From Craspedostauros australis (Eukaryota > Bacillariophyta > Bacillariophyceae > Mastogloiales > Achnanthaceae): 64,000 nucleotides of DNA. The notes below the pieces were generated by a model. It was not told the DNA's origin and did no database searches. It saw only the letters and a program-made list of their open reading frames with translations. Below, piece by piece: positions 4,694-58,381 of the stretch. The position numbers were made by a program, and so were the translations under genes. Position 1 is the first letter of the stretch. Every line of letters begins with the position of its first letter. The stretch is from positions 1,835,001 through 1,899,000 of the forward strand of contig JAMXDE010000009.1 in assembly GCA_026770025.1 (NCBI GenBank), written 5' to 3'.

Positions 4694-7600
4694 CGTTTCG
4701 AAACGTTACGATTGAAATCCTACGTTTCTACTACCATCAGCACAGCAACACTCGCCATCACCCTCACCACCACCATCATCATGAGCTCCCTCTTTGGCAA
4801 GTCCGATCGTTACCCCATCGTGTTCGACGGAAAGAAGTCCTCTTGGAACGCATGGAGCGCTAAGTTCCTCACCCGCGCTGAACGCAAGGGCTACGGGAAC
4901 TTTTACCTCCAAGCTGCGGATGCCGTGGTGGTGAAGGATGAACCTCTCGGACCATCCGGCCTTGCCCCGACGACGGGCGGAGACTCGGGTACGGGGGAAC
5001 CCAAGAAGGTGTCAGCCATGACCTACAAGGAGAAGGCTGAGTACCGTAAGGCGTTGGCGAAGTACGTGTTTGAAGAACTGACCATGGCGATTAACCATGA
5101 AACTCCGGAAGGCAATGTTGCCTTCATGGCTGTGCTGGGATGCAAGAGCGGTACCTACGAGGCAGGTGACCCACGCAAGGCGTGGAAGGCGCTCGAGTGC
5201 ATCTACGAGCAACGTACTGCACCAGTGAAGGCGCAGTTGTTGGCTCAACTCAATGGAATGCGGTTGAAGAAGGGCGAGCGCCCTGATTCGTTTCTCACCG
5301 ACATGGAGGTGCTCCGCAACCGTTTGGAGAGTGCTGGCGTGAAGATGGACGCCGAGCAATACAACATGCTTGTGCTCAACGCTCTTGGGAGAGACTACGA
5401 GATGGACGTGAAGCTCATAGAGCTCAAATTTGCAGGCAAGGAAGACAAGATGACAGTTGAAGACATCCGCGAGGCCGTGTGCCTCACCTACGACCGCCAC
5501 CATACCAAACATGGTTCTAAGCGCGAAGGAGGCAACCATGGCAAGGAAGAGATGGCCTTGGCCGCGATCGGCGGGTTCAAGGGCAACTGTCGCAACTGTG
5601 GCGTCTACGGGCACAAGAAGGCGGACTGTCGCTCCCCAACCAAGAGCGGCAACGGCAAGCAAGGCGGTGGCGCCAAGAAGAACGGCAACCGCGGCAATGG
5701 CAACCGCAACAACGGCAACTCCAGCGCCGGAGGCTTCAACGGCAAGTGCAAGTTCTGTGGCAAGACAGGCCACAAGATCGTGCAATGCTTCAAGTTGAGA
5801 GCAGCGATGAAGGACGCAGACTCAGCCAATGTGGCTACCGACGGGATGAACAGCATGGACGACGTCGCGCTGGTCAGCGTCGATGAAGTGATGTTGTGTC
5901 ACGAAATCGCGGAAGATGGAGAAATCGCGCGCAACACCAAAAATGTGAGCGAAAAACAAATTCTCACCGACCACGAAATCGTGACAACCCGCACCCACGA
6001 CACGGAGAGCAACATCGAAAACCTCATGGAGGACATGGCTCTCGTGGTCGTCGACGGAAACTTGGCCGCAGGGTTCTACAACGGAACCAACAACAACAAC
6101 GACGAGGAGTCGATCGAAGTGGTTGGGATCCGCAGCCCGAACGACTACGGTTACTACGGACCGCAAGTCGACGCGGATCGCATGATGAGCGACAACTTGT
6201 TCTCGTCTGATGAGAGCGAAGCTGACGAAAACGAAAGCAACGAGATCGCGATGCCCGGCATCGACCTCCACGCGACGGCTTCAGCAAGGCGACCAGAGCC
6301 GATCTACAACGTGCGCCCCATCCGCTCCTACTTGGACGGATTGATCGAGACCGCGTCTCGGCGCGACAACGACAACGCGTGGTGCCCACTGTGCCTGACC
6401 AAAGGGCCTTTGTTCTCGTGGTGTGTTGACTGCCCGTTCTGCCCATTCTTGATCCTCATCCCAGGAGGACCAAAGGGAGACGTGCCTGTGACACCAGCCG
6501 AGAAGCTCCAACGCCGCCAAATCCTTGGAAGCGACAACCCTCCCTATGCGGTGAGATGCTCGCTGTCCAACGTGATGCCTGCGAATGATGTTCGTTCCGA
6601 CCTCTCGCTCATCTGCTATGACGCGATGGAGGCATACCAAGGCATCGACGAGAACCGCATGGAAGTGCGGAGTGTGTACTTCATGCTGATGACCATTGGC
6701 GTGATCGGAGCATACGATGTGGCGAGCAAGGCAATCGACATCAACGATTTGCTTGAGGAGAATCGTCTCCCGCCACTCCCGAAGAACCTGATCTCGCGTA
6801 TGAGCGCCATGGCCGCGGATCGCCTGCTCTGGATTCACCATCCATCGGACAACGGCGTGCGCGACGGGCACATGTTCGACGAGTTGCCCATCTACGGGTA
6901 CAACCATGCGCATGAGCTAGCCATGGTGATCGGCGACATGTACGACGCCGGCGAACGCAAGAAGACCATCGCGCCAGATCGCCACGAGGCAAACACCTGG
7001 CTTGGCGACTCGGGGGCATCCTGCCACCTCACTAACTGCGACGAGGGTATGACGAATGTGCGCCTCGCGAGCTTTGCAGTCAAGGTGGGAAGCGGGCGCT
7101 ACCTCAAAGCAACGAAGGTGGGCGACAAACGCATGAAGGTGATGCAGAAGGATGGCTCCGAGGTCATCATCATCCTCAAGGCGGTGAAGTTCGTTCCCAA
7201 GCTTTGGGTCAACCTCCTGAGTATCACGAAGGCACTCGAAAGCGGATTCGATATCAGCAACAAGGGTGTGGTGATGGCTCTCGAGAAGAACGGATTGCGT
7301 ATCCGTTTCGACCGCATCATGGCGACTCACAGTGGATTCGTTTCCGGCGTGAACATGGTGGCGATCCCAGCCGAACATGAGATGGCAAACATTGGTGTGT
7401 CCACCGGCAAGGCGGTCGACATCAATCAAATCCATAAAATGTTAGGCCACGTTGACACTTACACTATCTCGCGCACTGCTGCGCGGTACGGATGGAATGT
7501 CATAGGACGAATGAATCTATGTGAGGACTGTGCCATCGGCAAATCTCGACAAAAATGTTTGTCGAAAATGTCACAGCCGAAGGCGAACAGAGTTGGCGAA

Positions 7601-9212
7601 CGGCTGTTCATGGATACCTCCAGTGTCCAGACGTACAGTTTTGGTCGCGGAAAATTCTGGCTCCTGATCATTGACGACTACAGCGACTACTGCTGGAGCT
7701 ACTTCATCAAAGAGAAGAGCGAAGTGGGATCGAAGATGATGTCGCTCTTGAGATGGCTCAAGGCGAATCAGAACGTGACTGTCGAGAATATCAGATGTGA
7801 CAACGCAGGCGAGAACTACAGCGCAGAGGCGCAGCTACTCAAGGTGGGATTCGGCCCGATATTCGAATACACGGCAGCTTCAACTCCACAGCAGAATGGT
7901 CGCGTGGAACGAAAGTTCGCTGTACTATACGGAAAGGTCAGGGCGATGCTCAACCAAACCCACCTACCAAAGCACCTACGAGGGAAGCTATGGGCTGAAG
8001 CAGCGAGAACAGCAACGCAACTCGAGAACATCATTGGAACGAAGTCGAGAGAACCGGCTTGCGTACTATTCAATGGGCAGACTCCCACATACGTGGACGG
8101 ACTGCGTTTGTTCGGCGAGATTGGCATGGTGTTCATCGGAGGCCGAGTGATCAAGGCGAAACTGGACGATCGGTCCAAGCCTGCCATGTTCGTCGGATAC
8201 GGACAGTCACACGCGAGCGGTGTATACCGAATGATGAACCTCGCAACGGCAAGGATCCTAATCACACGAGACGTGACATGGATGAACCAGTCGTATGGGC
8301 AGTTCAAGGGTGTTGAGAATGCCAACAGATCGATGATACATGATCTGGAAGACGACGACTCTGACACTGGAGATGCATTCCAGAGAAAGAGAGTGACTTG
8401 GGGGCGAAGCTCGAACATCGCAAGAAGTGCGAAGATCGGCGTTGCAGAGAGGAGCGGAAGAGCCGGACACACAACAAGAGACACAGACGACACCGCTCAC
8501 AAGCAAGATGATTTGCTACCTACCCAAGGGGAAGAACCATCGATCAACGATAAGGACGATGAAACCGGAAGGGACAACGACCGTGCGGGGCAGATCGATT
8601 TGGCTACTGAGCAATCGATTGCACGCACTCCCATGAGACCATTGGCGCGCGTACCGAGAATGGTGAGTAGCCTGGCTGGCTATAACAACTCACCGATTCC
8701 CCAAGAGGAGAGGGAACGAGAATCAGAATCGGGTTCGGAATCGGAGGCAGGCAAAGCATCAGCATCAGGGGATGAGGATGGCTACGACACTGCGCAGGAG
8801 ACGATGATAGTCCCCGCGGCTACTGGAGGGCCCAGCTTCCACACAGATGGGTCGATGTTCAACAGGGACGTCGCTAGCATGATGATCGATACTACCCAAG
8901 GGAGGATGAGACTTATCGACTTCATCGCTGTGAGTCAGGATGTTGAGAACGAACGGAATGGTGAATGGTCCGAACAAGCCAACACAGCTGTGATGTTGGA
9001 TCCAACGACGTTCGAGGAGTGCTGGGATCATGCTGATCCCGAGAAGAGAGACAAGTGGCGTGGGGCTATCAATAAGGAGTTCACCGACATGGCCAGAAGA
9101 GGAGTATGGCAGAAGATCAAGAAGAGCGAGATGCCAGACGATCGACGATGCGTGAAGACCAAGTGGGTGTTCAAGGAGAAGAGGAACGGCGTGTTCCGCG
9201 CCCGACTGGTTG
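3927..9212 (+). mobile_element. Ty1/copia element A, 3' part missing
   Basis: It has a 5' LTR, gag, protease and integrase, and the first residues of reverse transcriptase. It is cut off at 9212, where the LTR of element B begins. The rest of RT, RNase H and the 3' LTR are not found in the window, including on the far side of element B. Orientation is plus. The order gag-PR-IN-RT identifies copia rather than gypsy. Confidence 0.8.
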
Positions 9213-9367
9213 TGTTGGCAAGTTCCGCGCACGGTAACCTACGATCGTGGAAGATGGTGTTGGTTGATAGTCGTTCGTTTGCTATTTCATTACTTGGCTA
9301 CTCCGATGCTCTCGGTGTACGCCCGTTCTCTTGCCCGATGCTCTCGGCGCTTCAATCTGTTTCGTAG
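4781..9367 (+). CDS. Copia gag-pol polyprotein of element A, truncated in RT
   Basis: I start it at the ATG at 4781 (MSSLFGKSDRYPIVFDGKK). An upstream in-frame TTG at 4712 is an unlikely start. Domains in order are: a gag region with the conserved F-D-G-x(5)-W-x-x-W pattern; two CCHC zinc knuckles (CRNCGVYGHKKADC near 5590 and CKFCGKTGHKIVQC near 5750); an acidic spacer; aspartic protease at WLGDSGASCH (about 7000); and integrase with MLGH...C..C, D at FMDTSS, D at RCDNAGEN and E at GRVERKF (7430-7930). RT then begins at KWVFKEKRNGVFRARLVV. The frame crosses the insertion point at 9213 and ends on about 52 residues encoded by the B LTR. Without RT and RNase H it cannot transpose on its own. 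Confidence 0.9.
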   Translation: MSSLFGKSDRYPIVFDGKKSSWNAWSAKFLTRAERKGYGNFYLQAADAVVVKDEPLGPSGLAPTTGGDSGTGEPKKVSAMTYKEKAEYRKALAKYVFEELTMAINHETPEGNVAFMAVLGCKSGTYEAGDPRKAWKALECIYEQRTAPVKAQLLAQLNGMRLKKGERPDSFLTDMEVLRNRLESAGVKMDAEQYNMLVLNALGRDYEMDVKLIELKFAGKEDKMTVEDIREAVCLTYDRHHTKHGSKREGGNHGKEEMALAAIGGFKGNCRNCGVYGHKKADCRSPTKSGNGKQGGGAKKNGNRGNGNRNNGNSSAGGFNGKCKFCGKTGHKIVQCFKLRAAMKDADSANVATDGMNSMDDVALVSVDEVMLCHEIAEDGEIARNTKNVSEKQILTDHEIVTTRTHDTESNIENLMEDMALVVVDGNLAAGFYNGTNNNNDEESIEVVGIRSPNDYGYYGPQVDADRMMSDNLFSSDESEADENESNEIAMPGIDLHATASARRPEPIYNVRPIRSYLDGLIETASRRDNDNAWCPLCLTKGPLFSWCVDCPFCPFLILIPGGPKGDVPVTPAEKLQRRQILGSDNPPYAVRCSLSNVMPANDVRSDLSLICYDAMEAYQGIDENRMEVRSVYFMLMTIGVIGAYDVASKAIDINDLLEENRLPPLPKNLISRMSAMAADRLLWIHHPSDNGVRDGHMFDELPIYGYNHAHELAMVIGDMYDAGERKKTIAPDRHEANTWLGDSGASCHLTNCDEGMTNVRLASFAVKVGSGRYLKATKVGDKRMKVMQKDGSEVIIILKAVKFVPKLWVNLLSITKALESGFDISNKGVVMALEKNGLRIRFDRIMATHSGFVSGVNMVAIPAEHEMANIGVSTGKAVDINQIHKMLGHVDTYTISRTAARYGWNVIGRMNLCEDCAIGKSRQKCLSKMSQPKANRVGERLFMDTSSVQTYSFGRGKFWLLIIDDYSDYCWSYFIKEKSEVGSKMMSLLRWLKANQNVTVENIRCDNAGENYSAEAQLLKVGFGPIFEYTAASTPQQNGRVERKFAVLYGKVRAMLNQTHLPKHLRGKLWAEAARTATQLENIIGTKSREPACVLFNGQTPTYVDGLRLFGEIGMVFIGGRVIKAKLDDRSKPAMFVGYGQSHASGVYRMMNLATARILITRDVTWMNQSYGQFKGVENANRSMIHDLEDDDSDTGDAFQRKRVTWGRSSNIARSAKIGVAERSGRAGHTTRDTDDTAHKQDDLLPTQGEEPSINDKDDETGRDNDRAGQIDLATEQSIARTPMRPLARVPRMVSSLAGYNNSPIPQEERERESESGSESEAGKASASGDEDGYDTAQETMIVPAATGGPSFHTDGSMFNRDVASMMIDTTQGRMRLIDFIAVSQDVENERNGEWSEQANTAVMLDPTTFEECWDHADPEKRDKWRGAINKEFTDMARRGVWQKIKKSEMPDDRRCVKTKWVFKEKRNGVFRARLVVLASSAHGNLRSWKMVLVDSRSFAISLLGYSDALGVRPFSCPMLSALQSVS

Positions 9368-10037: not shown

Positions 10038-13000
10038 TCATTCGAATGTTCTCGATGTGTCAAGGTACGACTTCTCGTGTTCGCGTTGTAAGTCGGCCTT
10101 GATGTTCTTGGTGAATCCGTCGCTTGTGTTTTGCTCGGATTTGACAAAAATGATCTCGATGGTTTTGTTGATTACCATGTTCCTCACGTAGTGATGGCGC
10201 ACGTCGATGTGCCGCGATCGTTGGGATGTTGATGGGTTCTTGGCGATGAAGATCGCTCCGATATTGTCCACACGGACCTTAATCGGTGTCTTCACTGGGA
10301 CGCCCACACTTTCGAGTAGCTGCACGACGAAGAAGATTTCCTTTGCCGCTTCGGAGAGGGCAACGTATTCTGCTTCGGATGAGCTGAGTGTGACGGCCTT
10401 CTGTGCCTTGGATCGCCAAAGGATTGGTACCTTGCACAGGTATAGGATGAATCCCCCTACGCTGATTCTCGTGTTCTTGTCTCCTGCATATTCGCTATCG
10501 CAGAAGAGCTCCATGTCCCAGCCGTCGTCGTCTGGACGCGCTGGATGGATCTTCAATCCATAGTCCTTTGTATCGATCACATACTTGATGATCTGATACA
10601 TCTCCTTCATTGCGGCCTTGGTGGGCCCGATCAATACCTTGGAGAGTTCCCTCACAGGGTTCGCGATATCTGGTCGCGAGTGCTTGATGAGGAAGAGTAG
10701 CACACCGACGCCTCGGCGGTACTCGGCATGTTCTTCCGCTCCGACCTTCTGCAGTCCGTTATCTTCGGATGGTCGTACGATGATTTGGCCCGGGGTTCCC
10801 GGTGTCCCATAGCGCTGCATCTTCTCAACCTTGGTTCCGAACTCTTCGATGAGATGTCGGATGAGGTGTGGTTGACGCAATGTCGCTCTGGTCTTGTCAT
10901 GGTTCAGTTCAATGTTGCAGCTGAGGTAGTCTCCGAGTCCGCGCTCGATTGTCACCTTGAACTTGCTGCCTTGGATGTCCTTCAGGAATGTCTCCAGTGC
11001 CTTGGAGTCTCCGCAACAGAAGCAATCGTCCACGTAGATGGCCACGATCATGCTTCCTTTGTTCGTCTTCCTGTAGAACAGGCACGGGTCTGCTGCGCTC
11101 TGTTCGAAGTTGATATTCTTGAGGGTCGATACCAACATCTTGAACCATTGCCTGGCGCTCTGCACAAGTCCGTAGATTGGCTTGTGTAGGGTCAGGGCTT
11201 CGTCTGGTTGATGATTCATCCCGTTGGGACAGTTCATGTAGATCTCCTCGTCGAGGTCTCCGTGTAGGAATGCCGTTACGACATCGACGAGTGCGCAGTC
11301 CATCTTCTTGATCAACATGATCACCATCATGACCCGATAGGTCACGTCATGAATGACGGGTGAGTAGTGCTCTTGGAAGTCCACTCCTGCGACTTGTGAA
11401 TAGCCACATGCAACGAGCCGCGCTCGATGTGTGCCGTCACGCTTCAGCTTGAAGACCCATTTGCATTTACAGCATCTGCGGCCGCGTGGAATGGCGTCTC
11501 GTTTGATCTTACTGTACACTTTGCGTGTGTCCATGGAGTCGAACTCTTTCTTGATGGCTGCTCGATATCCCTTTCGATGGATAGGGTCTGGATGATTGAA
11601 GGCTCCATCGAATGTTGTAGGTTCGATGTGCTTCTCTGCTTCCTTGTTCTCGTCCTGCATCGATAATCCGATATCGATCGCTGGTGATTCGGTAATGATT
11701 GCATTCATTCCGTACAGTCCTGTTGTGCTATAATGAGTGACCTCAATCTCTCCTTCATCTGCAATTTCTTCGTCATCTGTAGTTTCGTTGTTGGAATCGT
11801 CGGTCTCCTCGTCGCTGAGTTCATCGCTGTCTTCGTTGGATGATGGATCGCTTTCATATCCTTCTTCCTTTCGACCTCGTTCGTTGTAGTCTGCGAGCTC
11901 ACGCAGAGCTCTGGGAATGCTCTTCCCTGTAGTCGGTTTGGGATTAGCTTCTCCCTTCCTGCCTCGTGCTTTGTGACGTCGGATCCTCTCCTTTCTAGCT
12001 ATGTCACGTTTGCTTGGCTTACTCGGTGGAGGTCTGGATGGTGTACCTTGTGTAGACCTCGCTGGTGTGTTCGGAGGAGTGACGTCTGTGTCATCGTCGG
12101 CTTCGTCGCCGGATGGTGTGATCTCGTCATCCTCATGATTGGATTCGCTCCGATCTTCCTCGTCGTTATGGATTAGTTGAGTTACTATTTCGTCGTCCTC
12201 ATTATCCTCATCGTCACTGTCCGATAGGATATAGTATCTGTTGCTGTCAGCAAAAGATACTCTCTTCGCTTCCAATGTTTGACGCGTTGCCGTCCTTGGC
12301 ATTGCTCCCTTCCGTCCGATGGTTGTGAAGCCGTCTGCGTCCGTCGTTCCTGTTTCGTTGGATATGTTCGGTGCTGGTGCCCAGCCACGGAACTGTCCGT
12401 ATGATTGGTTGAGCCACTTGATGTCGCGTGAGCAGACGAGTGACTTGGTCGATGGTCTGTACATGTTGTAGACCCCTGATGCATGTTGGTGTGCATATCC
12501 GATGAACACCATTTCTTCTCCTCTATTCTTGAGTTTAGCGGTGATCCCGCCGTAGGTAGTCTTCACAACACCCACCTCTCCGAAAGTGCGGAGTGCATCC
12601 GCGTATGGTGGATCATTGCCGAAGAATTGTCGATGTGGTGACTCCTTTTGATTCTTCGCTACAGTGATGTTGACGATGGCGGTGGCAGTGCTAGCAGCTG
12701 CTGCCCACAGGCCATGCCTGTACTCTTCGTCGAGCTGTGCTCCGTTGAGCATGGAGCGGATCTTGGTGTAGAGGTACGCGAACTTGCGTTCTACTCTACC
12801 GTTCTGTTGCGGCGTGTTCGATGCAGTGAATTCGAATTTCACGTTGAGTCCTGCATCGATGAGAATATCCTGCGTGGATTTGTTCTCTCCGCTGTTGTCA
12901 CCTCGGAAGATGATCTGTTGGTCACCTGTCTGTGACTTGATCGTCTGGACGAATCGTTTGATGTACCCTGGTTGATCACTTTTGTTTTTGAGAAAGAAAC

Positions 13001-16000
13001 TCCAGCAGTGATCCGTGCAGTCGTCCACGATCAGGGTCCAGTAGCGTTTATCTCCGAAGCTTATGTGTTTAGTGTAACTAATGTCAATGAAGAGCCGTTC
13101 GCCGCGGCGAGTCGCTCTCGGAATGGTTGCCTTCGGAATGTTCTTCACTCTTGCGTTCGCGACCGCGCAGTCGCGACATACCGGCATCTCGCCGATAATC
13201 TTCCATCCGTATTGAGCGGCCGTTCGCTTCATGGTCTCAAGTGGCGCGTGGCCGAGCATTCGGTGCAGGTTCACCGCGCTGATCTCCTTGGATGGGTTCT
13301 TGACGAGGGCTGTGCAAGCCTTGTCGTCGTTCGTTGGCATGATGGGGTGCATCTGCACTCCCGTGATGAATCCGTTGGCCGTGGGGAAGACTCGGTCGAA
13401 TACGATCTTCGTTCCGAATCCGTTGATGATGTCCATCAGAATGCCGTTGCTACCAAGCTGGTAACCGTTGTACAGAGCCTTGTTCGTGGAGAAAAGGTTC
13501 ACCGCCATTTTCGGTGTGTACTTCACATCATCAAGCCGGATGACGTGGCCAGTGTTGTCTCGCTGCTTGACCTTCAAGCGAATGGATCCCATTTTGGGAG
13601 AGTCCAGCTTCGTGCTGTCTCCCACTTGGACGAATGACTTGATGTGCCGCACGTTGAAGAGAGCGGCGTCTGAATTGACGATGTGACACGAAGCTCCACT
13701 GTCGGCGAGCCAGGTGTCCTTGTTGACCTTGTCCTTGTGTTTGGTGCTCAGCTTGTGGAGCTGCTCCACGGCTGCTGCAGCTGTATCGGTCATGACGTTA
13801 TCTTCGTCCTCTTCGTCGATGTGGACTCCATATTCGTTCCATGGATTCTCGTGATGTTCGTCGTCGGTCTCATCGGATAGCTGCGCGTAGTCCGATGGAG
13901 TCGTGTTGCTTCGGTGTGATCTTGTGACTGGATCGTATGGGTGGACGCGTGATCGCTCTCGCAAGAGTACACGCATACATCCTCCAAGGATGTAGTGCAG
14001 ATCCGTTTCTGGGATCGTTTCCGAGTCGTTGGCTTCCAGTATGTGGTTGATGACGATCGCGTTGGCAAGGATCTCTTCGATTGATTCGAAGTGCTTGGAT
14101 AGGATGGATCCCATCATGTTCACCCATATCGGCATGAGTGCCCCTCGCGTGGTTTCTGGGAACAGTCGCATCCCCGCTTCCATTACAGTGTCAAAGATGA
14201 GCTGCTTTTGGATTGTTAATGCCGTTGCTGTTGCGTCTGGTGTGATAGTGTGACGGAGTAGATAGTCGACACTGTTGGGATCCTCGATATCCGGGAAGTC
14301 GATGTTCGCTGGATAGACGACACGCTCGTTTGGATTGAAGCTGTCGTTTGGATGATTGCCGTCCTCGGATTCGTCGCTGTCATCCTCGTCGAAGATGCCC
14401 GATCTGTTGTTCCCCGCTGCTGGAGGAGGCGGCGCCGCGCCGCGGTTTGTTTCGTTGTCGTCATCTACGCCGTCCTCGTCGGCGTCGTCGTCGTCGTCGT
14501 CATCGCTCATGGCCTCTTCGATGTCGCTATCGTTGGCCTCGTCGTCCATCTCAGCTTCGTCGCCGTATGAACCGATCAGGTCGTGCGCGTTGAAGCAGCA
14601 TTCGTAGCTCACCTCGCGTCTTGGATCCACCTCGTGGATGATGGGCTCCTCGCTGAGCCACTCCGGGACGATCTCATCGTCCTGTACTTCGTCGTCACTT
14701 CCGACGCACTCGAAGTTATCGAAGAAGGAGTCTTCGATGTAGTCGTCGGACACCAACATGCAGAGCGGCATGTCCTTCGCAGAGAGTACCATCTCGTGCC
14801 CGCTCTTGTCGTGTCCTTCCGTAGCCGTGTTGGCTTGTTCGTTGTTCTTTTTGCTTTCGTTGAACTTCTTCTTTCGGCACTCCGCCTCGCGATGTCCGAA
14901 GATGCCGCAGTAGTTGCACTTGCCCTTGAAGCCGCTTCCCTTGTTACGCTTTCCGTTCATGTTGTTGTTGTTGTTTTTCTTGTTGTTCGATTTCTTGCGT
15001 TCTGGACAATCGGCGGATCTATGGCCATACACACCACAGTTGTGACAAGTACCCTTGAAGTTACCGGTGCTAGTGAAGCCGGTGTCGTTGCTCTTCGTGT
15101 TACTGTCTTGGAAGTCGTCGACGTATGCCTTGCCTCCTCTGTGAGTGGCGTATGCAGTGCGGAGTACTCCTCTGATCGTGTTGATGGTAACCAGTTCCGG
15201 ATTGAACGTGAGTTGATGTTGGAAGTTCACGATGTGGGTTCTGTACTCGTTGCTCACTGTGCTGAGGATTTGCATGATCATTTCCTCGTCCGTGATTTCG
15301 TACTTGACATCGTGGAGACGCGATCGTAGACTCTCGAGTTGCGTGATGTAGATGTCGGGGTCCGAGTCTCTCTTCATCTTTTCGTTGTTGAATTGGCGCT
15401 TGAGTTTGATCTTCGTCACCGCGTCGGATGGTCGGAACTTCTCCGCGAGAACGTTCCACGCTGCGTGTGCGTCTCCTTCGGGGTAGTCGTCGGAGATGCA
15501 CTGGTTGATGCACTGGATGGCTTGCTTGCCTTTTCCTTTCTCTGCATCCATCATAAGGATCAGATCGCTGAAGCAGTCGCATCCCAGCTCGTAGATCTCT
15601 TCCATCGCTTCCTTGGCTTCACCGGTGGCTGCCGCGATCTCGCTCACTGTTGGCACCTTGGTCTTGCCCAACATCACATCTCTCGTCTTCTGTGCACGAG
15701 CGTATGCCTTCGCTTGGGACTCTCATGCGCTGTAGTCTTCCTGTTCACCGCTGAACATCGGCGCCTTGATGCGTCGCTTGTTCACGTTGGCTGATGTCGC
15801 CATGTTGATTCGTTGTTTCGTTGTTGGTGCGCTCGCGCCCTTGATTTCCGTTTGTTTCTGTGTTGTCGATTCTTCGATTTTCGCTTGTTGTTTCGCGAGG
15901 GTTGATTTGCTCACAAATTCTCCTCCTGGTGGTGTCTCACTTTTACCACTTCGTTTGGCTGTGCGGATGTTCTCCGTCACACCAGTCTCCTCTTGCTTGT

Positions 16001-50397: not shown

Positions 50398-50942
50398 TGC
50401 AAACGGGAAGCAAACATGTCAACGATACTTCAGGAGAGGCAATGTCGATAGTGATGTTGTTGTTCCACTCTTGTGTGAGTGATGAGGATGTACATTTTGA
50501 TTACATTATGGTAGGTTTGAGGAGGAGGCACAATACGAGTTTGTGCAAGTACGTGGCGACGACCATTCAACAAAGAATCCTCATAGTTGTACTCTACAGA
50601 TTCTCCTCCCCACATGGATCGAACGCTTTTTACTGGTCGCATCCAAACAGAGAAGGCAGCCAAAGGGAAGTCATGTGCATCGAGGAATGATACATAGGAG
50701 ACATTATTTCGCCCGCGAGAGCAGAGACACACTTCCCCCTGTCTCGCCAAGAAATGTCCGAGACCGAAGTAACCGGTGGTTCATTGTCACGATGCTTCAA
50801 GTATGAACATGCCTCGAGTATTCCCACATTTGCGTACGAGTGTGGTGACGACGATTGGCTGTGTTTCTTCGTTGTCGTTCGTGAAGAGAGCATGATGAAT
50901 AGTCGTGATCACCCCAATCGAATCAAGAAGAATAAGAGCCCC
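50398..50942. other. Flank between carbonic-anhydrase-like gene and TIR element
   Basis: 545 bp with no coding support. It holds the 3' end of the preceding gene. Confidence 0.5.
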
Positions 50943-51104
50943 TCGAGCGAGTCGATCAAGACTTTGAAATAGACCTCGCAACTTTATTCCTGCGATTTCA
51001 AAACTAAGTACATATTCCCAATCCTCGTAGATCTAAAACATATACCAATCCATTCCAGATCTGAGGTTGGCCGTATTTTAAGTTTTATGGACCGATGGAT
51101 GTGC
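50943..51104 (+). repeat. Left terminal inverted repeat
   Basis: About 160 bp. The outer 25 bp and the block at 51076-51103 match the right end in inverse orientation, with degenerate but alignable sequence between. Confidence 0.8.
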
Positions 51105-52785
51105 GCATTTTTCGATCTCTTTCGGGTTTCAGCTGTTTGGCTACGACTACATCGATCCAACTTAACCCTTTGCTGTTCTTTGTTTCAGCAAGGTTGTTCC
51201 CATTTTGAATTGTTTAGTCTCTTTTTCAGGCGTTCCGATCAGAGCATCCAACACCCTGTCCACGATAGCGCTAGTTGTAGAGTTCTGGGAGAAGCGGCGG
51301 GTGCGCGTTTACGTCCAATCTACTCTGTGCGTGTCCAATCCGTCGTCGACGTCAGCAAACTGGCTTCTGCGTCATGAACCACCAATCACAGCACGATGTG
51401 CTAGGTTCTCACCAATGCCTTGTTGTGGTGGAATGGTTGAGTGAGGTTGGTACTCTCGAAGTGTTTTGTGTCATGCATTTTCGTATGTTCGTTGCAATGT
51501 TTGACATTTACCTCAGCCCCCAGGATGCCCGACTGGCCGAGAGCGCCAAACTCGACACAAGAAGATGACAATGGCGGAACACCAAAACAACATCACAATG
51601 GACACCCAACGGCATCGTCAGCGCCGCACCAACCAGCGGCCCAATGACAAATACAAGCACATCTCCGTCACCGCCATGCAACCCTTGGTGGGTGGACGAG
51701 CGGAGGCTGCGAGAGCGGTTGGTTTGGGGCAGCCGCAGGCCTCCGCGCAAACGTCTCAAAATTGCGGCAGATTTGCTCGTTGGATGTGGCCTGTGTATTC
51801 CATGCACAGGCCACACCAACACCTGCGAATGGGCAAGACGCATCCAAGAGGTCACCATCAAGGTCCCCACGAAGTTTGAGGCTCGGGAAGGACCGGGAAG
51901 GTGTCCGCGCGGAGGAATCAGTGGAGGGCAAGAGTTTTGTTGGGCGGATCGTGGCGAACCTGCCATGTGACTTTGGCAGTGAGGGGGCAGCATCATCAAG
52001 CTGCCCAATCTCCAAGTCACCCATACAAGACCCGTGCGCCATCGCCTGAAGATGCACGTCGCGAAGTTCGAGCTGCTGCAACGGTCTGGAAGAGGCTGCG
52101 GCATGGAATGAGTGCATACCTGTCATTTTTGGTGGGGCACCCAAAACCAACAGGGCCATCACCAAATGGAGGTGTGCCATCGGGACCATCCACACCCATC
52201 CCAGTCTGGATGCATCAGCATGTTGCCAGGTAGTGTGGGAATGCACGAGGGTCACGTGGAGGGGCTGAAAGGGTCCTGTGGATGAGATATGGATCCGTAT
52301 CCATACCGCATCCGGCTTGCACTTCGTTTTTTGAAATCGTTCTTTTTCAGTGTATCGACACTTTGGGGTGTGCAATGTGGCAGAAATGTTCTGTCCTTCA
52401 TGGAGTGGATAGCTGGGGAGCATACAGAGCCATTGTGGTGCGCAGTTTGAAGAAATACAACAATGATGATGATGATCATGGGTGCTGAGGGGAGGGCAAC
52501 ATTGTGCCATCCAGAATTTTTCGAATTCACCACACAACTGTGTGGTGGTCAAACATGACAATAAAAACAATTTCTATGTCAATTTAACTTCGATATTCTG
52601 TATAACCTATAGTCAGGCGTCTGAATGCAATGTTTAGATTTAATTGCAAACGATGTGTTGTTGAGATATAGCATGACAAGCAGATATTGGATGTGTTTTT
52701 TGGATGGCCTCTAGACTCGTTGTAGTAGCATGGTCTGCCACCCACAAAACTCCACAACTCGTGTTATCGCGGCGATGCACATCCA
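51105..52785. other. Element interior downstream of the transposase-like gene
   Basis: 1.7 kb between the left TIR and the stop of the large frame. Around 51560-52100 the GC content is higher and several overlapping frames are open, for example a plus-strand one containing RKRLKIAADLLVGCGLC. None has a recognisable motif or a firm start. It may be a decayed second gene or captured host sequence. AAAACTCCACAACTC...TATCGCG at 52746 resembles a stretch at about 22113 in the window. Confidence 0.3.
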
Positions 52786-55700
52786 TCACAAAATTTCCGT
52801 CCCATCATCCAACACAGCCTCACTTTCTGTGTTGGCCTTCAGTGTGTCAGCATCACACCACATCTGATGATCCAGCTCCTCCTCCTCTCTCTGCAACTCC
52901 TTCTCTGTTCGTTCCTCCTGTGTTTCAGCTGGCGCATAGTGGGTCGCCACGATTACAGATGCTGTTGCTTTGCTTGTTGGGTTGGTGTTGGTGTTGGTGT
53001 TGGTGTTGGCTTCTGCCTTGATGAGAGCGGCCTCCTTCTTGTCCTTGCGTTGTTTGGCGTTGTACGCTGCAGACAGCGATGCTTTCACCCGCATGGGATT
53101 TGCGTGCAGTTGTACGTACCAGTCAGTTTTCGTTTTTTCGTGGTTCATCAATTGTTCGTGAGCTTCATGTTCGGACGGTCTGTTTTTCGAGTCCTTCGCG
53201 GACGCTTCACTGATGCCCTTCAATTTGTCCGCGATGTAGTCTGGTAGTTCTGCTGGTTTGCGCGTTGTTTTGCTCGCCCAGCCTGGCACTGCGAGTGGAG
53301 GGTGTTCGGTTTCGGCGGTCTGGTCTTGTAGCGCTGTGGTGTGATCGGAAGGTAGATGTTGTTGTCCGTCTGCGATGGCTTTGCCGAACGCCAGCCCCTT
53401 GCTCTCTGCCGCTGTGCGCCCGAGTTTTCGCGTCTTGTCCGTCTTCCTGAACGATTCGGACGTTATCGGCAGCTTGTCGGACTTGTGTGTGTGAACATCG
53501 GCAACGCCCAGCTGGTTGATGATCCAGCCGCCCCATTCAGCGCTCTTCACAACAACGTCTTCCGTGATGCCAGATGCAGCCACCAACCGCGCCTGGTCAT
53601 CATCATACTTCACCTCGTGAGTCTGACGTACCTGTTGCCCGTTCGCACGGAATCGTCGTTTTGGTGCGCCAGGAAGCGCGGTGATGTTGCCTTGGAGGGA
53701 CGACGCGTTGACCAGCACCATGGTGGTACCCGCGATGTCACCAGCTTTCAGTGCAAGGAAGAGTTGGAACGGGGTCTTGATGTCCTTGCCACTTTGCACA
53801 TATTTTTGCAGTACACGTGTGATGTACGCGAAGTGGGTGTCCAGCATGCTCTTACCAGTTTGGGCCTCTGTGTAGATCCACGCAATGATTTTGGCTGCTT
53901 TTCGTGTCACAAGGTTCTTGTTGAGTACCGATGTGATCAGTGGGATGTGCTCGTGACTGGCGAAGCAACACGCATTATCGCTCTGTAGGATGATCTCAGT
54001 CACGGATGGGTGAATGTCTTTGACCTTTTTTTGCACAATGTCAAGTAGCCCACCAACTTGAAGTGTGTCTTGAGTCGGTCTTCCACCGACCACAATGTCG
54101 ATGAACCGATAAGTAAAAATGTCGTTGCGACATGTGATGACCATCGCCCCAAGCAGTGACATTCCCTTTTTCCCCCAATATTCTTGTTGGGCTTCGCTTT
54201 GGCCTGTCGGTAGAATTTTTTGCTTATGGTCGAGTACCACATAGGCTCTTTCAGGCTTTTCGTTGAGCTGGGATTGATAAAAGGCAATTTGTCCGAATTG
54301 CACTTTGGCACGCACTTTGTGAGCCATGTAGTTCACAATTTCGTTGGCGAATCCCGGGGCCGCCGCAAGCATTGATTGCAATTCGTCCTTGTGTTCTGCG
54401 AGTTCGTTGTCCTTAAGCATTTCGACAAAAGGGACAAAACGATCGTTCACAAATCGCATTGCTGATCCACAATGGTTGCATACTTTACACGCGGTGTTCT
54501 TCTTGCTCTTGTGCTTGTTGGTGCGTGGTTTGCGTTGATTGGAGGATGTGGTTGTTGCCTTCTTCTTCTCCTTTTTGGTGGTGAGAGCGAACGCGGCCGA
54601 ATGCATGGGGTCGTCGCACTGAAGCTGCATGTGGGAGGCGGTGAATTCCCATTTGAGGAACACAACAAGCAGTTCGAGTGCATGCAAGAGGGAATCGGCT
54701 TTGCGTACATGATGTGCGATGACGTCATCTGGCTCATCGGTATCGTTGTGGCTCCTGTCATTGGCATCGTTTTTCTCCTCTCCACCAGCTTCATACTTAG
54801 CCTTCAGGAGGTCTACTAGGCGCGAAATTGCCTGTTTGAGTTGCTCCATCGCCATCCAGAAGTAGCTCTCGAAGGAAGAAAGACCCGTCTTGATCTTGCT
54901 TTTACGTGTGAGCAGGTTAGTCATGGTGGTGAACGTGGGCATTCCAACTGGAGTATTGGTGGTAGGCGCGTACATGTCGAATAATTCTTGAATGGTGGTG
55001 CTTCCACGATCGAACACCGGGACATTTTCAAATACAACTCCACCATACTGTACCGTGTGACTCAACCCTGCCTTATATGTAGTAGTTGTCATGAGGAAGG
55101 ACACCACGCCAGACAGGTTGCAAGCACACACACGGTACTGGAGAACTCGCTGTGGAATGCTGTCGCCATGGCTTAACATGTCGTAGTAACGACGCAAGGT
55201 GTATGTCTGGCTGGGTGTGATGATGTCGCGTTTGGCAAGCATGCGAGCCTTCTGTTCCTCCGACAGTCCATGTGTGTGCCTACCCAGAATAGCAGTACAC
55301 AGTGCAGACGGTGCAGACATGGCCAAAGCAACTCTTGCCGTGCGGGAAGAAGAAGATTCTCCGAGCAAGCAGAGGGTGTAGAGGTTAGATGCCAACATCG
55401 TGGGAGGAAGCTCCACGTTCCCTCGCACGTATGCAATCACCTGTTCCATCTGACGAGTTGGCACGTTCTCTTCTGGAAGCAGGACAGTCCAAAGTGCAGA
55501 TGATGTGACACTCCACATCAGTTTGATGTAGCTCCAGATGGTCCGATCGTGTCGGCCCGCGAGGACGAATCCTTTTTTTGGCATGAGCTGCAACAGTTTT
55601 GGATCTAGGTTAGATCTAAGCGCTGCCATCACACGAACAATGGCATGGCGCCTCCAGTTTCCCCCCTCCTCTTCCTGATCATGCCCGAACTCGCCTTCTC

Positions 55701-56364
55701 TCCTGTCCCAGCCAGCGCGCGCCTGTTTTTCGTCCTCGTCAACGTACGTACTGTCGCTGTCAATAGACGGATCTGCGTACCCCCCGGCAACAACAGTGTT
55801 GCAACGCCGGGGAACCCTCCCTGGCGGGGTAGGCTCGACAGGTGGTGCAACGTCGGCTGCAGTAGGCGAGGGTGGCGCGTTCACGATAACGCTCACCAAA
55901 GTCCCATCGCCGACACCTCGTCCCTCCGAACGCACCTCGACATGGGAGTCGTCGAAGACGCCTCCGTTGTCGTTGAGGATGTGGACGAACATATGCAGCT
56001 CGCGAGCGTGCGCATGCGTGCCGTTCGGGACGAGGTTGCCATCCGCTGCATGCATCGGTTTCACATCGATCACTCGCGTGATGGTGCTCTGCCTCCCCAA
56101 TACAGCGAATGGCTTGTCAGGCAACAGTTGCTCAGAGGCTGGCAGCAGGGCCCCCTTGGAGTCGAATGGGTGAGCAGGCATGGGGTGAGCAGAACACAGC
56201 TTCTTACGAGGAGAGGGGTTGCCATCCTTGGGGAGGGCCTTGTCAGCAGCAGAGGTAGGCATGGTGGAGTTGTTGCTGGAGAGTAGTGCTGTTTGCTTGT
56301 TGGATGTGATGAACTGGTCTGAGAGGAAGTGAGGTAAGGAGAGCACGGGATGAAGGCCGATCAT
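52786..56364 (-). CDS. Transposase-like protein, RNase H/DDE type, unnamed family
   Basis: 1192 residues from ATG 56362-56364. A second ATG at 56262 (MPTSAADKALPKDGN) is an equally good start. The N-terminal third is low-complexity and acidic. A zinc-binding candidate, C-K-V-C-N-H-C, lies just before the core. The core has three regularly spaced acidic motifs: VVLDHKQKILP followed by YWGKKGMSLLGAMVI; then EIILQSDNACCF; then WIYTEAQTGKSMLDTHFAYI. The pattern D-x-K-x-K...GK-x-G...LQ-[ST]-D-N...TE-x-Q-x-GK-x-x-LD-x-HFA is one I associate with large unnamed proteins in other eukaryotic genomes, often labelled C2H2 or hypothetical. It fits an RNase H-fold transposase. The C-terminal part is Lys/Glu-rich with a (TN)n run encoded by GTTGGT repeats near 52980. 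The position between long TIRs supports a transposase role. Confidence 0.75.
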   Translation of the reverse strand: MIGLHPVLSLPHFLSDQFITSNKQTALLSSNNSTMPTSAADKALPKDGNPSPRKKLCSAHPMPAHPFDSKGALLPASEQLLPDKPFAVLGRQSTITRVIDVKPMHAADGNLVPNGTHAHARELHMFVHILNDNGGVFDDSHVEVRSEGRGVGDGTLVSVIVNAPPSPTAADVAPPVEPTPPGRVPRRCNTVVAGGYADPSIDSDSTYVDEDEKQARAGWDRREGEFGHDQEEEGGNWRRHAIVRVMAALRSNLDPKLLQLMPKKGFVLAGRHDRTIWSYIKLMWSVTSSALWTVLLPEENVPTRQMEQVIAYVRGNVELPPTMLASNLYTLCLLGESSSSRTARVALAMSAPSALCTAILGRHTHGLSEEQKARMLAKRDIITPSQTYTLRRYYDMLSHGDSIPQRVLQYRVCACNLSGVVSFLMTTTTYKAGLSHTVQYGGVVFENVPVFDRGSTTIQELFDMYAPTTNTPVGMPTFTTMTNLLTRKSKIKTGLSSFESYFWMAMEQLKQAISRLVDLLKAKYEAGGEEKNDANDRSHNDTDEPDDVIAHHVRKADSLLHALELLVVFLKWEFTASHMQLQCDDPMHSAAFALTTKKEKKKATTTSSNQRKPRTNKHKSKKNTACKVCNHCGSAMRFVNDRFVPFVEMLKDNELAEHKDELQSMLAAAPGFANEIVNYMAHKVRAKVQFGQIAFYQSQLNEKPERAYVVLDHKQKILPTGQSEAQQEYWGKKGMSLLGAMVITCRNDIFTYRFIDIVVGGRPTQDTLQVGGLLDIVQKKVKDIHPSVTEIILQSDNACCFASHEHIPLITSVLNKNLVTRKAAKIIAWIYTEAQTGKSMLDTHFAYITRVLQKYVQSGKDIKTPFQLFLALKAGDIAGTTMVLVNASSLQGNITALPGAPKRRFRANGQQVRQTHEVKYDDDQARLVAASGITEDVVVKSAEWGGWIINQLGVADVHTHKSDKLPITSESFRKTDKTRKLGRTAAESKGLAFGKAIADGQQHLPSDHTTALQDQTAETEHPPLAVPGWASKTTRKPAELPDYIADKLKGISEASAKDSKNRPSEHEAHEQLMNHEKTKTDWYVQLHANPMRVKASLSAAYNAKQRKDKKEAALIKAEANTNTNTNTNPTSKATASVIVATHYAPAETQEERTEKELQREEEELDHQMWCDADTLKANTESEAVLDDGTEIL

Positions 56365-56367
56365 TCA

Positions 56368-56441
56368 GCAACAACAACAACTACTACTACTACTACTACT
56401 GCTACTACTACTGCTACTACTACTACTACTACTACTACTCT
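56368..56441. repeat. CTA/CTG triplet microsatellite
   Basis: CAA repeats turn into (CTA)n with two CTG interruptions, just 5' of the transposase-like start. It may lie in the 5' UTR of that gene. Confidence 0.9.
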
Positions 56442-56544
56442 GACAAGAACGGGCATTGAGCGAAAGAGCGAGTGTGCATGCCATTGGCGAGGCAAGTTGT
56501 GAAACGGAGCGAAAGTGTGGCGCGATTTTGCAAAATGATGGGGA

Positions 56545-56600
56545 TGATGTGTTTTGTGTGATGTGTTTTGTGTGATGTGTTTTGTGTCACGTGTTTTGTG
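56545..56600. repeat. 14 bp tandem repeat inside the TIR element
   Basis: GATGTGTTTTGTGT occurs about three times in a row, followed by a decayed fourth unit. Confidence 0.8.
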
Positions 56601-56781
56601 ACGAGCAGAATGTGGAATCATGCGCCACATGCTAACGTGTAATTAACGTGTACCAAACGACTGAGACCTTCGGAAGCAAGTTCGTGACTGATCACCAGAC
56701 GATAAATATTTGAGAACATCATCGAACCTTCGGCCGAAACTAACGAATTTTGTGCTGTTGGATTCACGCGACTAGACTAAA

Positions 56782-56942
56782 CACATTGATTGATCCATAA
56801 AACTTAAAATGAAACTAACTACAATCTGAAAGGTTCAATTGTACATAAAGAGATGACGAATATTGTTAATATGTGATTTGTTTGTAAATCCCAGAAATCC
56901 GATTAGACTTTTCATTTCAAGGTCTTGATCGACTCGCTCAAG
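56782..56942 (-). repeat. Right terminal inverted repeat
   Basis: Reverse complement of 50943-51104, strongest at the outer 25 bp and at 56782-56810. A perfect 22 bp palindrome (56940-56961) starts at its outer edge. Confidence 0.8.
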
Positions 56943-58381
56943 ACTCCTTATAAGGAGTCTTCGAGTGTCTACTACACGAGTACGAGACAAGCATCCCATG
57001 TTGATGGAACAGTCATACTCCTTTCACAAGGAAACACCTGGCACTGCCTTCCACTCTTAGCCTCTCGTACGACTATTATTCTTGCTCTTGTCCTTGCTCT
57101 TGCTCATGAGATACGAACAAAGGCATTGCGGAAGAGAGTGAAAGTTGTCATGGTCCACCATTCGTGGTTGTATACCTTGACCAAGAGAATGAGTGTGATA
57201 CGCCACGATTTGCAGAAGTGTTTCGTGGGAGAGATCCTTTTCGTTCTATTATACTTCGGACTCTGTGGTGACATCGAGCCGCATAAGTCTCCGCTCCTCC
57301 TTGTGCGTTATGTGCAGCATCGGCGGCCGAACTGTGTTTGGAGTGGGACGCCAAGAACGTCTTCTGTTGGGTTGCCCCGAAGATCGCATGCATTTTTCCG
57401 TGTTTCTCATTTGGAAGAAACAGTCAGAATTATCAAGAGCGCGCTTTCTCCTTCTTGGCTGTTGTGCGCCAAACAATTGGACACACTTCCACCTTGCAGA
57501 ACCCTCAAGGGACCACTGAAGATTGCTACCTCTCAGCAACCAACATAGACGGGAGGCATGTCACCTATCAAGGACGTGTTGTGCAGAGCCATCGTCCTCT
57601 TCCTATGCACCATACCATACTTCTCCGCATGAAGTACCCATACTCACTTTGAACGATCTTGCATCCCTTTTCACATCTCATAACATCTCATAAAAAACAA
57701 CTATTATACCTCACAACACCAACAGCGACAACAACGATAACTTATAGAAGTCGTACAACACCTAACTGCAAGAAAAACACAACCACAGCCATCTCGAAAC
57801 ACACCACCAACTGATCGAAAACCGAAACAGAACAAAGTCAACGGTACGTTCATTTGTGTTCATCATGGCCGTGGCCATTGTCAACACCATGGCACAAGGC
57901 AGCAGGTGCTCATACGCCATTGTGACTGGCGTGAAGAGTCGTTTCCGGGTCCAGCTTGCCAACCACCTACACACTCTCGGAATCGTCCTCTGCTCTACCT
58001 GCGAGCTGTTCTCATGGTGGTCCACCGGTGTCACAATGTGGCAAAGGCATGCCATGCCATTCCACTTTACCACCACGTTCGACAACAGCAGACTTCGTTC
58101 TCGTTCTCCCTCATTCTCACATACTCGCTCATCACACGCTCATCGCATTGTCCACTTGTTCGTCCATCCAAAACCACGACGCTTCTCTCAACAAACAAAT
58201 CGCTGGACGGATTGCATCTTGACTCCTATCTGATCTGGCTGCGGCCAATGATGTGGCTCGTGTCCACCTATTCTTTGCATGGTACAACATGTCTGCGACC
58301 CATCTGCATCTGCATCTGCATGCGTACTGTTTCGTTTCATGCAGATAACGACGCACACTGACAAACCAGCCGATAGCAACC
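56943..58381. other. Intergenic, no supported gene
   Basis: Apart from the palindrome at its left edge I see nothing I can assign. Open frames of 80-200 codons here have no motif and overlap each other. Confidence 0.45.

What the first reader, a model, noticed from the sequence alone, without database searches (positions are those of the whole stretch)
50943..56942. Complete TIR DNA transposon carrying an unnamed DDE-like transposase family
Seen: long inverted repeats with an outer block (CGAGCGAGTCGATCAAGACT) and an inner block (TTTTAAGTTTTATGGA), each about 132 bp from its end, enclosing one 1192-codon frame. Its core has D, D and E/D motifs (VVLDHKQK; LQSDNACCF; TEAQTGKSMLDTHFA). Known: such motif sets mark RNase H-fold transposases, and I recall similar unnamed proteins in other eukaryotic genomes. 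Inference: proteins of this type are transposases, and this copy shows the element ends that link the protein family to a transposon.
Basis: partly seen in the sequence, partly recalled or inferred. Interest (0 to 1): 0.82.

Follow-up and report, generated by a model that had tools for sequence, protein, structure and literature searches.

The report
Algal-type DNA transposon with hairpin scars
This is a real, recently mobile cut-and-paste DNA transposon in a eukaryotic genome, and the damaged ends of eight copies, this one included, look like fossils of the cutting reaction, so that the enzyme's likely chemistry can be read from DNA sequence alone.

Summary
The window carries a 6.0-kb TIR transposon with one 1192-codon frame. 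The genome has 152 ends of the form GAGCCCNNYSAGYGAGTCGAYCA (control 0), 151 of them preceded by TAN. Of 28 fetched copies with two intact ends, 27 have matching 4-bp NTAN duplications; the 28th fits an inversion between two copies. Copies up to 99.95% identical in different flanks and dN/dS near 0.2 indicate recent movement and a selected protein.

New: in 8 of 18 non-canonical ends, the window's right end among them, the outer 5-9 bp are replaced by an inverted copy of the flank. One geometry fits all eight: flank cut NT^AN on one strand, joined to the other strand exactly at the element end. That is the scar expected from a hairpin on the flanking DNA (hAT/Transib-like), with a 2-nt offset. 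The chemistry is inferred.

No Pfam, NCBIfam, PHROGs or PDB-sequence match. Size and 4-bp TSD fit the Sola superfamily, but no Sola protein was available, so membership is untested. The RNase H fold is not confirmed (pLDDT 35 and 43). This copy is not complete: about 9 bp of its right end are lost.

The parts
50936..56939 (.). DNA transposon, remaining element sequence (6004 bp)
   Evidence: ends defined from genome copies; right terminus eroded
50932..50935 (.). left copy of the 4-bp target duplication, ATAA
   Evidence: same word implied by the scar at the right end
50936..50970 (+). left outer TIR block (starts GAGCCCCTCGAGCGAGTCGATCAAGAC)
56914..56939 (-). right outer TIR block, about 9 terminal bp lost
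51075..51103 (+). left inner inverted block
56782..56810 (-). right inner inverted block
52786..56364 (-). transposase-like frame, 1192 codons; probable start Met35 at 56262
   Evidence: dN/dS near 0.2
53770..54300 (-). candidate catalytic core: D712 (54229-54231), D796 (53977-53979), E833 (53866-53868), D842 (53839-53841)
   Evidence: invariant in 13 copies; fold not confirmed
56940..56951 (.). scar: 12-nt inverted copy of the right flank in place of the TIR tip
56952..56961 (.). flank arm that the scar copies (palindrome partner)
56639..56642 (.). GTAA, undisturbed counterpart of the site of a nested insertion (C15:1147328-1162540 in a related copy)
   Evidence: compared by eye
51100..52785 (.). 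left interior, no clear codon periodicity against the C8 copy (a mild skew in the first 600 bp)

Best explanation
A cut-and-paste TIR transposon that encodes its own DDE-like transposase. The transposase is inferred to (1) nick the non-transferred strand 2 nt outside the element, in the middle of the target word (NT^AN); (2) use the freed flank 3'-OH to attack the opposite strand exactly at the element's 3' end, which caps the flank with a hairpin and frees the element 3'-OH; (3) join both 3' ends to a new NTAN site with a 4-nt stagger, which gives the 4-bp duplication. When one end only is cut, the host opens the hairpin off-centre and joins it back to the trimmed element end, which leaves a palindromic scar. 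Shown by sequence: element, ends, TSD, recent copies, scars and their common geometry. Inferred: the chemistry, the hairpin, the catalytic residues, and that one end alone was cut.
For: 152 ends, 151 with TAN in front, control 0. TSD equal in 27 of 28 fetched pairs; the mismatch (C6) matches crosswise with its inverted neighbour copy. Copies up to 99.95% identical over 5.6 kb in different flanks. dN/dS 0.19-0.25 in 10 of 11 comparisons with the window copy, the eleventh having failed. Scars: 8 of 18 non-canonical ends fit the rule with arms of 4 nt or more, against 0.0002 of shuffled ends and 0 of 74 intact ends. Of 25 cut-position pairs only (top strand 2 nt outside, bottom strand at the element end) fits all 8; the next best fit 3. 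The TSD implied by the scar equals that of the other end in 8 of 8; for C10, C16 and C41 the other end was fetched after the scar had been read. The 2-nt overhang of such a cut is self-complementary in 3 of 8 only, which speaks against joining of two sister flanks. Flank hairpins are known for hAT and Transib; hAT excises blunt or with a 1-nt 5' overhang (PMC8151067, passages); Kat1 cuts mostly 1 nt from the TIR (PMC4763223, passages).
Against: No biochemistry and no usable fold. The rule was framed on five scars that I had already seen; three are later cases. The reading is unique in 3 of 8 (C25, C10, C16); in C7, C19 and C2 (TTAT) and in C30 and C41 (palindromic words) the same string also allows other cut positions. 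Inverted tracts of 8-17 nt seem long for opened hairpins, and the net length change is small (-3 to +4, worked out with TIR tips assumed from related copies), which a replication template switch would also give. My patterns need the TIR from base 10 inward, so deeper losses were missed. Three of the 18 places may be chance matches (control 3, 0).
Confidence: 0.7

Rival explanations
1. The palindromic ends are replication errors: the polymerase switched to the opposite template near the element end, copied 8-17 nt of flank backwards and switched back. The scars then say nothing about hairpins.
For: Inverted tract and lost bases have similar lengths, and 5 of 8 junctions share 2-6 nt.
Against: The first switch would have to fall at the same place relative to the element end in 8 of 8 different flanks, in left and right ends and in several TIR subfamilies. 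None of 74 intact ends shows such a fold-back.
Confidence: 0.15
2. The transposase makes a staggered double-strand cut without a hairpin, and the palindrome arises when two flank ends (sister chromatids) are joined to each other and later broken.
For: In C7, C19 and C2 the 2-nt overhang (AT) would be self-complementary.
Against: In C30, C25, C10, C16 and C41 the overhang (TT, CT, CT, GT, CT) is not; a broken dimer must also be rejoined to the same element end.
Confidence: 0.07
3. The element is an ordinary member of the named Sola superfamily (probably Sola1), so that only the scars are new.
For: 4-bp TSD, DDD-type triad, 2-9 kb and some over 15 kb, very variable TIRs (PMC10741241, passages); Sola1 elements average 5445 bp in bivalves (PMC10294476, passages) and occur in a brown alga (PMC12477816, passages).
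Against: No protein comparison was possible; Sola2 TSDs are AWWT in one report (PMC3627910, passages), unlike the NTAN here. This is a question of membership and does not exclude the mechanism above.
Confidence: 0.5

Closest known systems
Sola superfamily (Sola1 in particular)
   Same: TSD of 4 bp, three acidic motif residues, element length, variable TIR length, presence in algae (papers)
   Different: TSD here is strictly N-TA-N; protein similarity untested; whether NTAN targets and GAGCCC ends are Sola features could not be read in any passage I saw
hAT and Transib/RAG transposons
   Same: inferred hairpin on the donor flank (PMC8151067; PMC4763223)
   Different: offset 2 nt here against blunt or 1 nt; TSD 4 bp here against 8 bp (hAT; Tol2 in PMC8151067) and 5 bp (Transib, recalled); no Pfam match to these families
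piggyBac
   Same: 4-bp target word with central TA
   Different: piggyBac inserts at TTAA and caps the element end with the hairpin (PMC7351741, passages); here 11 different NTAN words and scars that copy the flank
Ds insertion with an adjacent inverted repeat in Arabidopsis
   Same: flank-derived inverted repeat next to a transposon end, explained by a flank hairpin (PMC1978519, passages)
   Different: there one 598-bp repeat; here eight short scars with one common geometry

Membership tests
TIR DNA transposon, cut-and-paste type | many copies with shared inverted ends and a target duplication of fixed length | tested here: met
TIR DNA transposon, cut-and-paste type | DDE/D transposase with RNase H fold | tested here: inconclusive
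   D712, D796, E833, D842 invariant; models too poor, no significant fold match
Sola superfamily | 4-bp TSD | tested here: met
   27 of 28 pairs
Sola superfamily | transposase converges with Sola1-3 transposases by sequence | not testable with these tools
   no Sola sequence in the libraries used; Bao et al. 2009 and Yuan & Wessler 2011 not held
Sola superfamily | terminal bases and target preference of a Sola group | not testable with these tools
   not given in the passages seen
hAT | hAT domains in Pfam; 8-bp TSD | tested here: not met
   no such Pfam match; TSD 4 bp
piggyBac | TTAA target; piggyBac domain in Pfam | tested here: not met
   2 of 28 pairs are TTAA, 11 words in all; no such Pfam match
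KDZ (Kyakuja/Dileera/Zisupton) | KDZ domains in Pfam (recalled); 8-bp TSD (recalled) | tested here: not met
   no such Pfam match; TSD 4 bp
Tc1/mariner | 2-bp TA duplication, no hairpin | tested here: not met
   the outer bases of NTAN also match in 27 of 28 pairs; feature from PMC8151067

The most novel reading that the evidence does not exclude
A DNA transposon superfamily that is not yet named, or a named one (Sola) of unknown chemistry, which excises by capping the host DNA with a hairpin from a nick 2 nt outside the element, in the middle of a strict NTAN target: a third spacing beside the 0 and 1 nt of the flank-hairpin transposases known to me.
Probability: 0.3. Interest if true: 0.8.

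Novelty: new variant of a known kind. Interest (0 to 1): 0.6.

Why it matters
The cutting chemistry is known for few eukaryotic transposase superfamilies (from general knowledge). If natural scars fix the cut positions to the base, the same reading can be tried on other transposons that have never been assayed, and the prediction here (flank hairpin, nick at NT^AN, 2-nt 5' extension on the excised end) can be tested with one protein and a short oligonucleotide. It would also tie a large protein without any Pfam entry to a mobile element, which helps to annotate such uncharacterised eukaryotic proteins.

Tried and rejected
Relatives elsewhere: none confirmed in viral contigs, phages or genome contigs (the second scan that was allowed was not used). 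The query patterns come from one genome and these collections hold few eukaryotes, so only close relatives would show. Profile against PDB sequences (best E 0.54), single protein against PDB sequences (best E 0.96), Pfam on the whole protein and on 13 core members, NCBIfam, PHROGs: nothing near a cut-off. Structure: two single-sequence runs, too poor to use; fold search in 'pdb' only; 'viral' and 'pdb_via' were not run. Copies from the genome search were not handed to structure prediction because its stated rule names other sources.

Considered and rejected: a second gene in the left 1.7 kb (no clear codon periodicity); cargo in the long copies (I read one, C8, 12.4 kb: its length comes from a nested copia-like retroelement, judged by eye; the other long copies were not read); a 2-bp or 3-bp TSD. 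L091 (C29) has two TIR fragments facing each other and does not fit the rule. Four single ends (L075-L078) were fetched and never paired.

Literature: searches (no paper). In these listings and the passages read I saw no account of Sola excision chemistry and, apart from PMC1978519, none of flank-hairpin scars left beside an element; subscription journals are mostly missing, so this does not prove novelty.

The draft also quoted 99.97% identity for copies in different flanks; that value belongs to the two rearranged C6 copies, and 99.95% (L010 and L012) is the value for independent flanks.
Full report
WHAT IS THERE. The window lies in an unnamed 74.8-Mb genome of 90 contigs. Its other genes look eukaryotic and perhaps stramenopile (diatom-like); this is an impression from recalled protein features, not a test. 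Between 50936 and 56939 lies a 6.0-kb element. Its inverted repeats are in two blocks and it has one long frame on the minus strand. In 12 of the 30 copies listed the frame opens at residue 24 and the first ATG is that of Met35, so the protein is probably about 1158 aa. In the left 1.7 kb substitutions against the C8 copy show no clear codon periodicity (a mild skew in the first 600 bp), whereas a stretch of the transposase frame shows a strong one (20/63/13 by codon position).

COPIES. DNA searches with the left and the right end each returned 40 matches, the number scored, out of 242 and 138 candidates. The protein search returned 45 matches, 33 of them nearly full length, of which 12 have no stop; in several of the other 21 the stop is the one just upstream of Met35. 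The pattern GAGCCCNNYSAGYGAGTCGAYCA occurs 152 times and its reversed control 0 times; 151 of the 152 have TAN directly outside. The exception is C13:349538, with flank ATTG. Other ends that keep the inner TIR: 10 (control 3), 8 (control 0) and 56 (control 0). Of the 56 I read eight; these are other TIR subfamilies. Two copies with such ends (L093, L094) carry the same protein at 68 and 71% core identity.

TARGET DUPLICATION. For 28 fetched copies with two intact ends, the 4 bp outside both ends are the same NTAN word in 27 (11 different words over the 28, flanks). In the 28th (C6:1182200-1188190) they differ, but its left word ATAG matches the right end of the neighbouring inverted copy (C6:1190514-1196504), and its right word ATAT matches that copy's left end. 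An inversion between the two copies explains this. One empty-site counterpart was seen: the C15 element (1147328-1162540) sits at GTAA inside a related copy, and the undisturbed sequence is window 56639-56642 (by eye).

AGE AND SELECTION. Copies in different flanks are up to 99.95% identical over 5.6 kb (L010 and L012). The window frame against ten other copies gives dN/dS of 0.19-0.25, including L094 at 58% protein identity, where dS is saturated (an eleventh comparison failed).

SCARS. While pairing ends I saw that some lack GAGCCC and carry a palindrome. I then searched for ends whose 4th or 5th base is not C: 18 places, all read. Eight of them (C2:1702604, C7:1891945 = window right end, C19:777004, C30:321656, C25:597591, C10:1281445, C16:217993, C41:313720) have the same build: flank up to N1-T2 of the NTAN word; then the reverse complement of the whole word and of 4-13 further flank bases; then the element from its 6th to 10th base on (TIR tips assumed from related copies). 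The word implied by each scar equals the word at the other end in 8 of 8. Five scars were known with their partner ends when I framed the rule; for C10, C16 and C41 I worked out the word from the scar and fetched the other end afterwards (the words were not noted down before the fetch). Of 25 combinations of cut positions only 'top strand 2 nt outside, bottom strand at the element end' fits all eight. The reading is unique in C25, C10 and C16; in C7, C19 and C2 the word TTAT makes three further readings possible, in C30 and C41 the palindromic word makes one. Shuffled flanks give a fit in 0.0002 of 36,000 trials, and 0 of 74 intact ends do. Of the other ten places some look like point-mutated or shifted ends, and some I could not assign.

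MECHANISM. T2 and N4' are the two strand ends that a staggered cut (top NT^AN, bottom at the element end) would leave on the flank, and in the scars they are joined to each other: a hairpin cap on the flank. In hAT and Transib the 3'-OH of a nick attacks the opposite strand and caps the donor flank; hAT excises blunt or with a 1-nt 5' overhang (PMC8151067, passages). Kat1, a domesticated hAT transposase, cuts mostly 1 nt from its TIR and makes flank hairpins (PMC4763223, passages). Here the offset would be 2 nt. Off-centre opening of the hairpin and joining to the trimmed element end, with 0-6 shared nt at the junction, completes the scar. A flank hairpin was proposed for one inverted repeat beside a Ds element (PMC1978519, passages). 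Replication template switching is the main rival: it would also give a small net length change, but it does not explain why the fold-back point has the same place relative to the element end in all eight. Joining of two sister flanks would need a self-complementary overhang, which 5 of 8 lack.

WHAT THE PROTEIN IS. D712, D796, E833 and D842 are invariant in 13 copies of this genome. Which of E833 and D842 is catalytic is open. Pfam, NCBIfam, PHROGs and PDB sequences give nothing near a cut-off. Folding without relatives failed (mean pLDDT 35 and 43). The PDB fold search has no match at E <= 0.001; eight of the 50 rows shown are RNase H entries, besides some Piwi/Argonaute and NurA entries, all with E above 0.05 and TM-scores of about 0.3 or less. 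I note this and do not count it as proof.

FAMILY. Sola is the best named candidate: DDD transposase, 4-bp TSD, mostly 2-9 kb and sometimes over 15 kb, TIRs of 11-1124 bp (PMC10741241, passages). Sola1 elements average 5445 bp in bivalves (PMC10294476, passages) and one family exists in the brown alga Ectocarpus (PMC12477816, passages). Sola2 TSDs are AWWT in one report (PMC3627910, passages). Without a Sola protein to compare I do not file the element there. It seems to work like a flank-hairpin transposon; whether it is a Sola is open.

OTHER PAPERS SEEN. PMC4455052, PMC5199201, PMC9033089, PMC6331000, PMC7351741 and PMC5225508 as passages; PMC10045372 the first of five parts; the rest in search listings only.

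Noticed in passing
window 4781-9367 (+) and 10038-15674 (-): Two frames of 1528 and 1878 codons that look like Ty1/copia gag-pol, judged by eye from recalled motifs; no domain search was run.
   Followed up: no
G000 C6:1182200-1196504 (L019, L020, L074, L107): Two inverted copies, 99.97% identical over 5.6 kb, with crosswise matching TSDs: the segment between them was probably inverted by recombination between the copies.
   Followed up: yes
L105 and L106 (C8:2189258-2201708): A 12.4-kb copy of the transposon holds a nested copia-like retroelement, so that long copies need not carry cargo genes.
   Followed up: partly
L091 (C29:40550-40700): Two TIR fragments face each other around a short palindrome (CTGTTT / AAACAG, loop TACG); it does not fit the scar rule and is unexplained.
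   Followed up: partly
ends listed, e.g. C17, C34, C58: Several TIR subfamilies (CCATGT, CCAGGT, CCGGGT, CCTGAT before SAGYGAG) share GAGTCGACCA; the family in this genome is wider than the window's subfamily.
   Followed up: partly
C13:349538 (L038, L085): The only one of 152 intact ends without TAN in front: flank ATTG.
   Followed up: no
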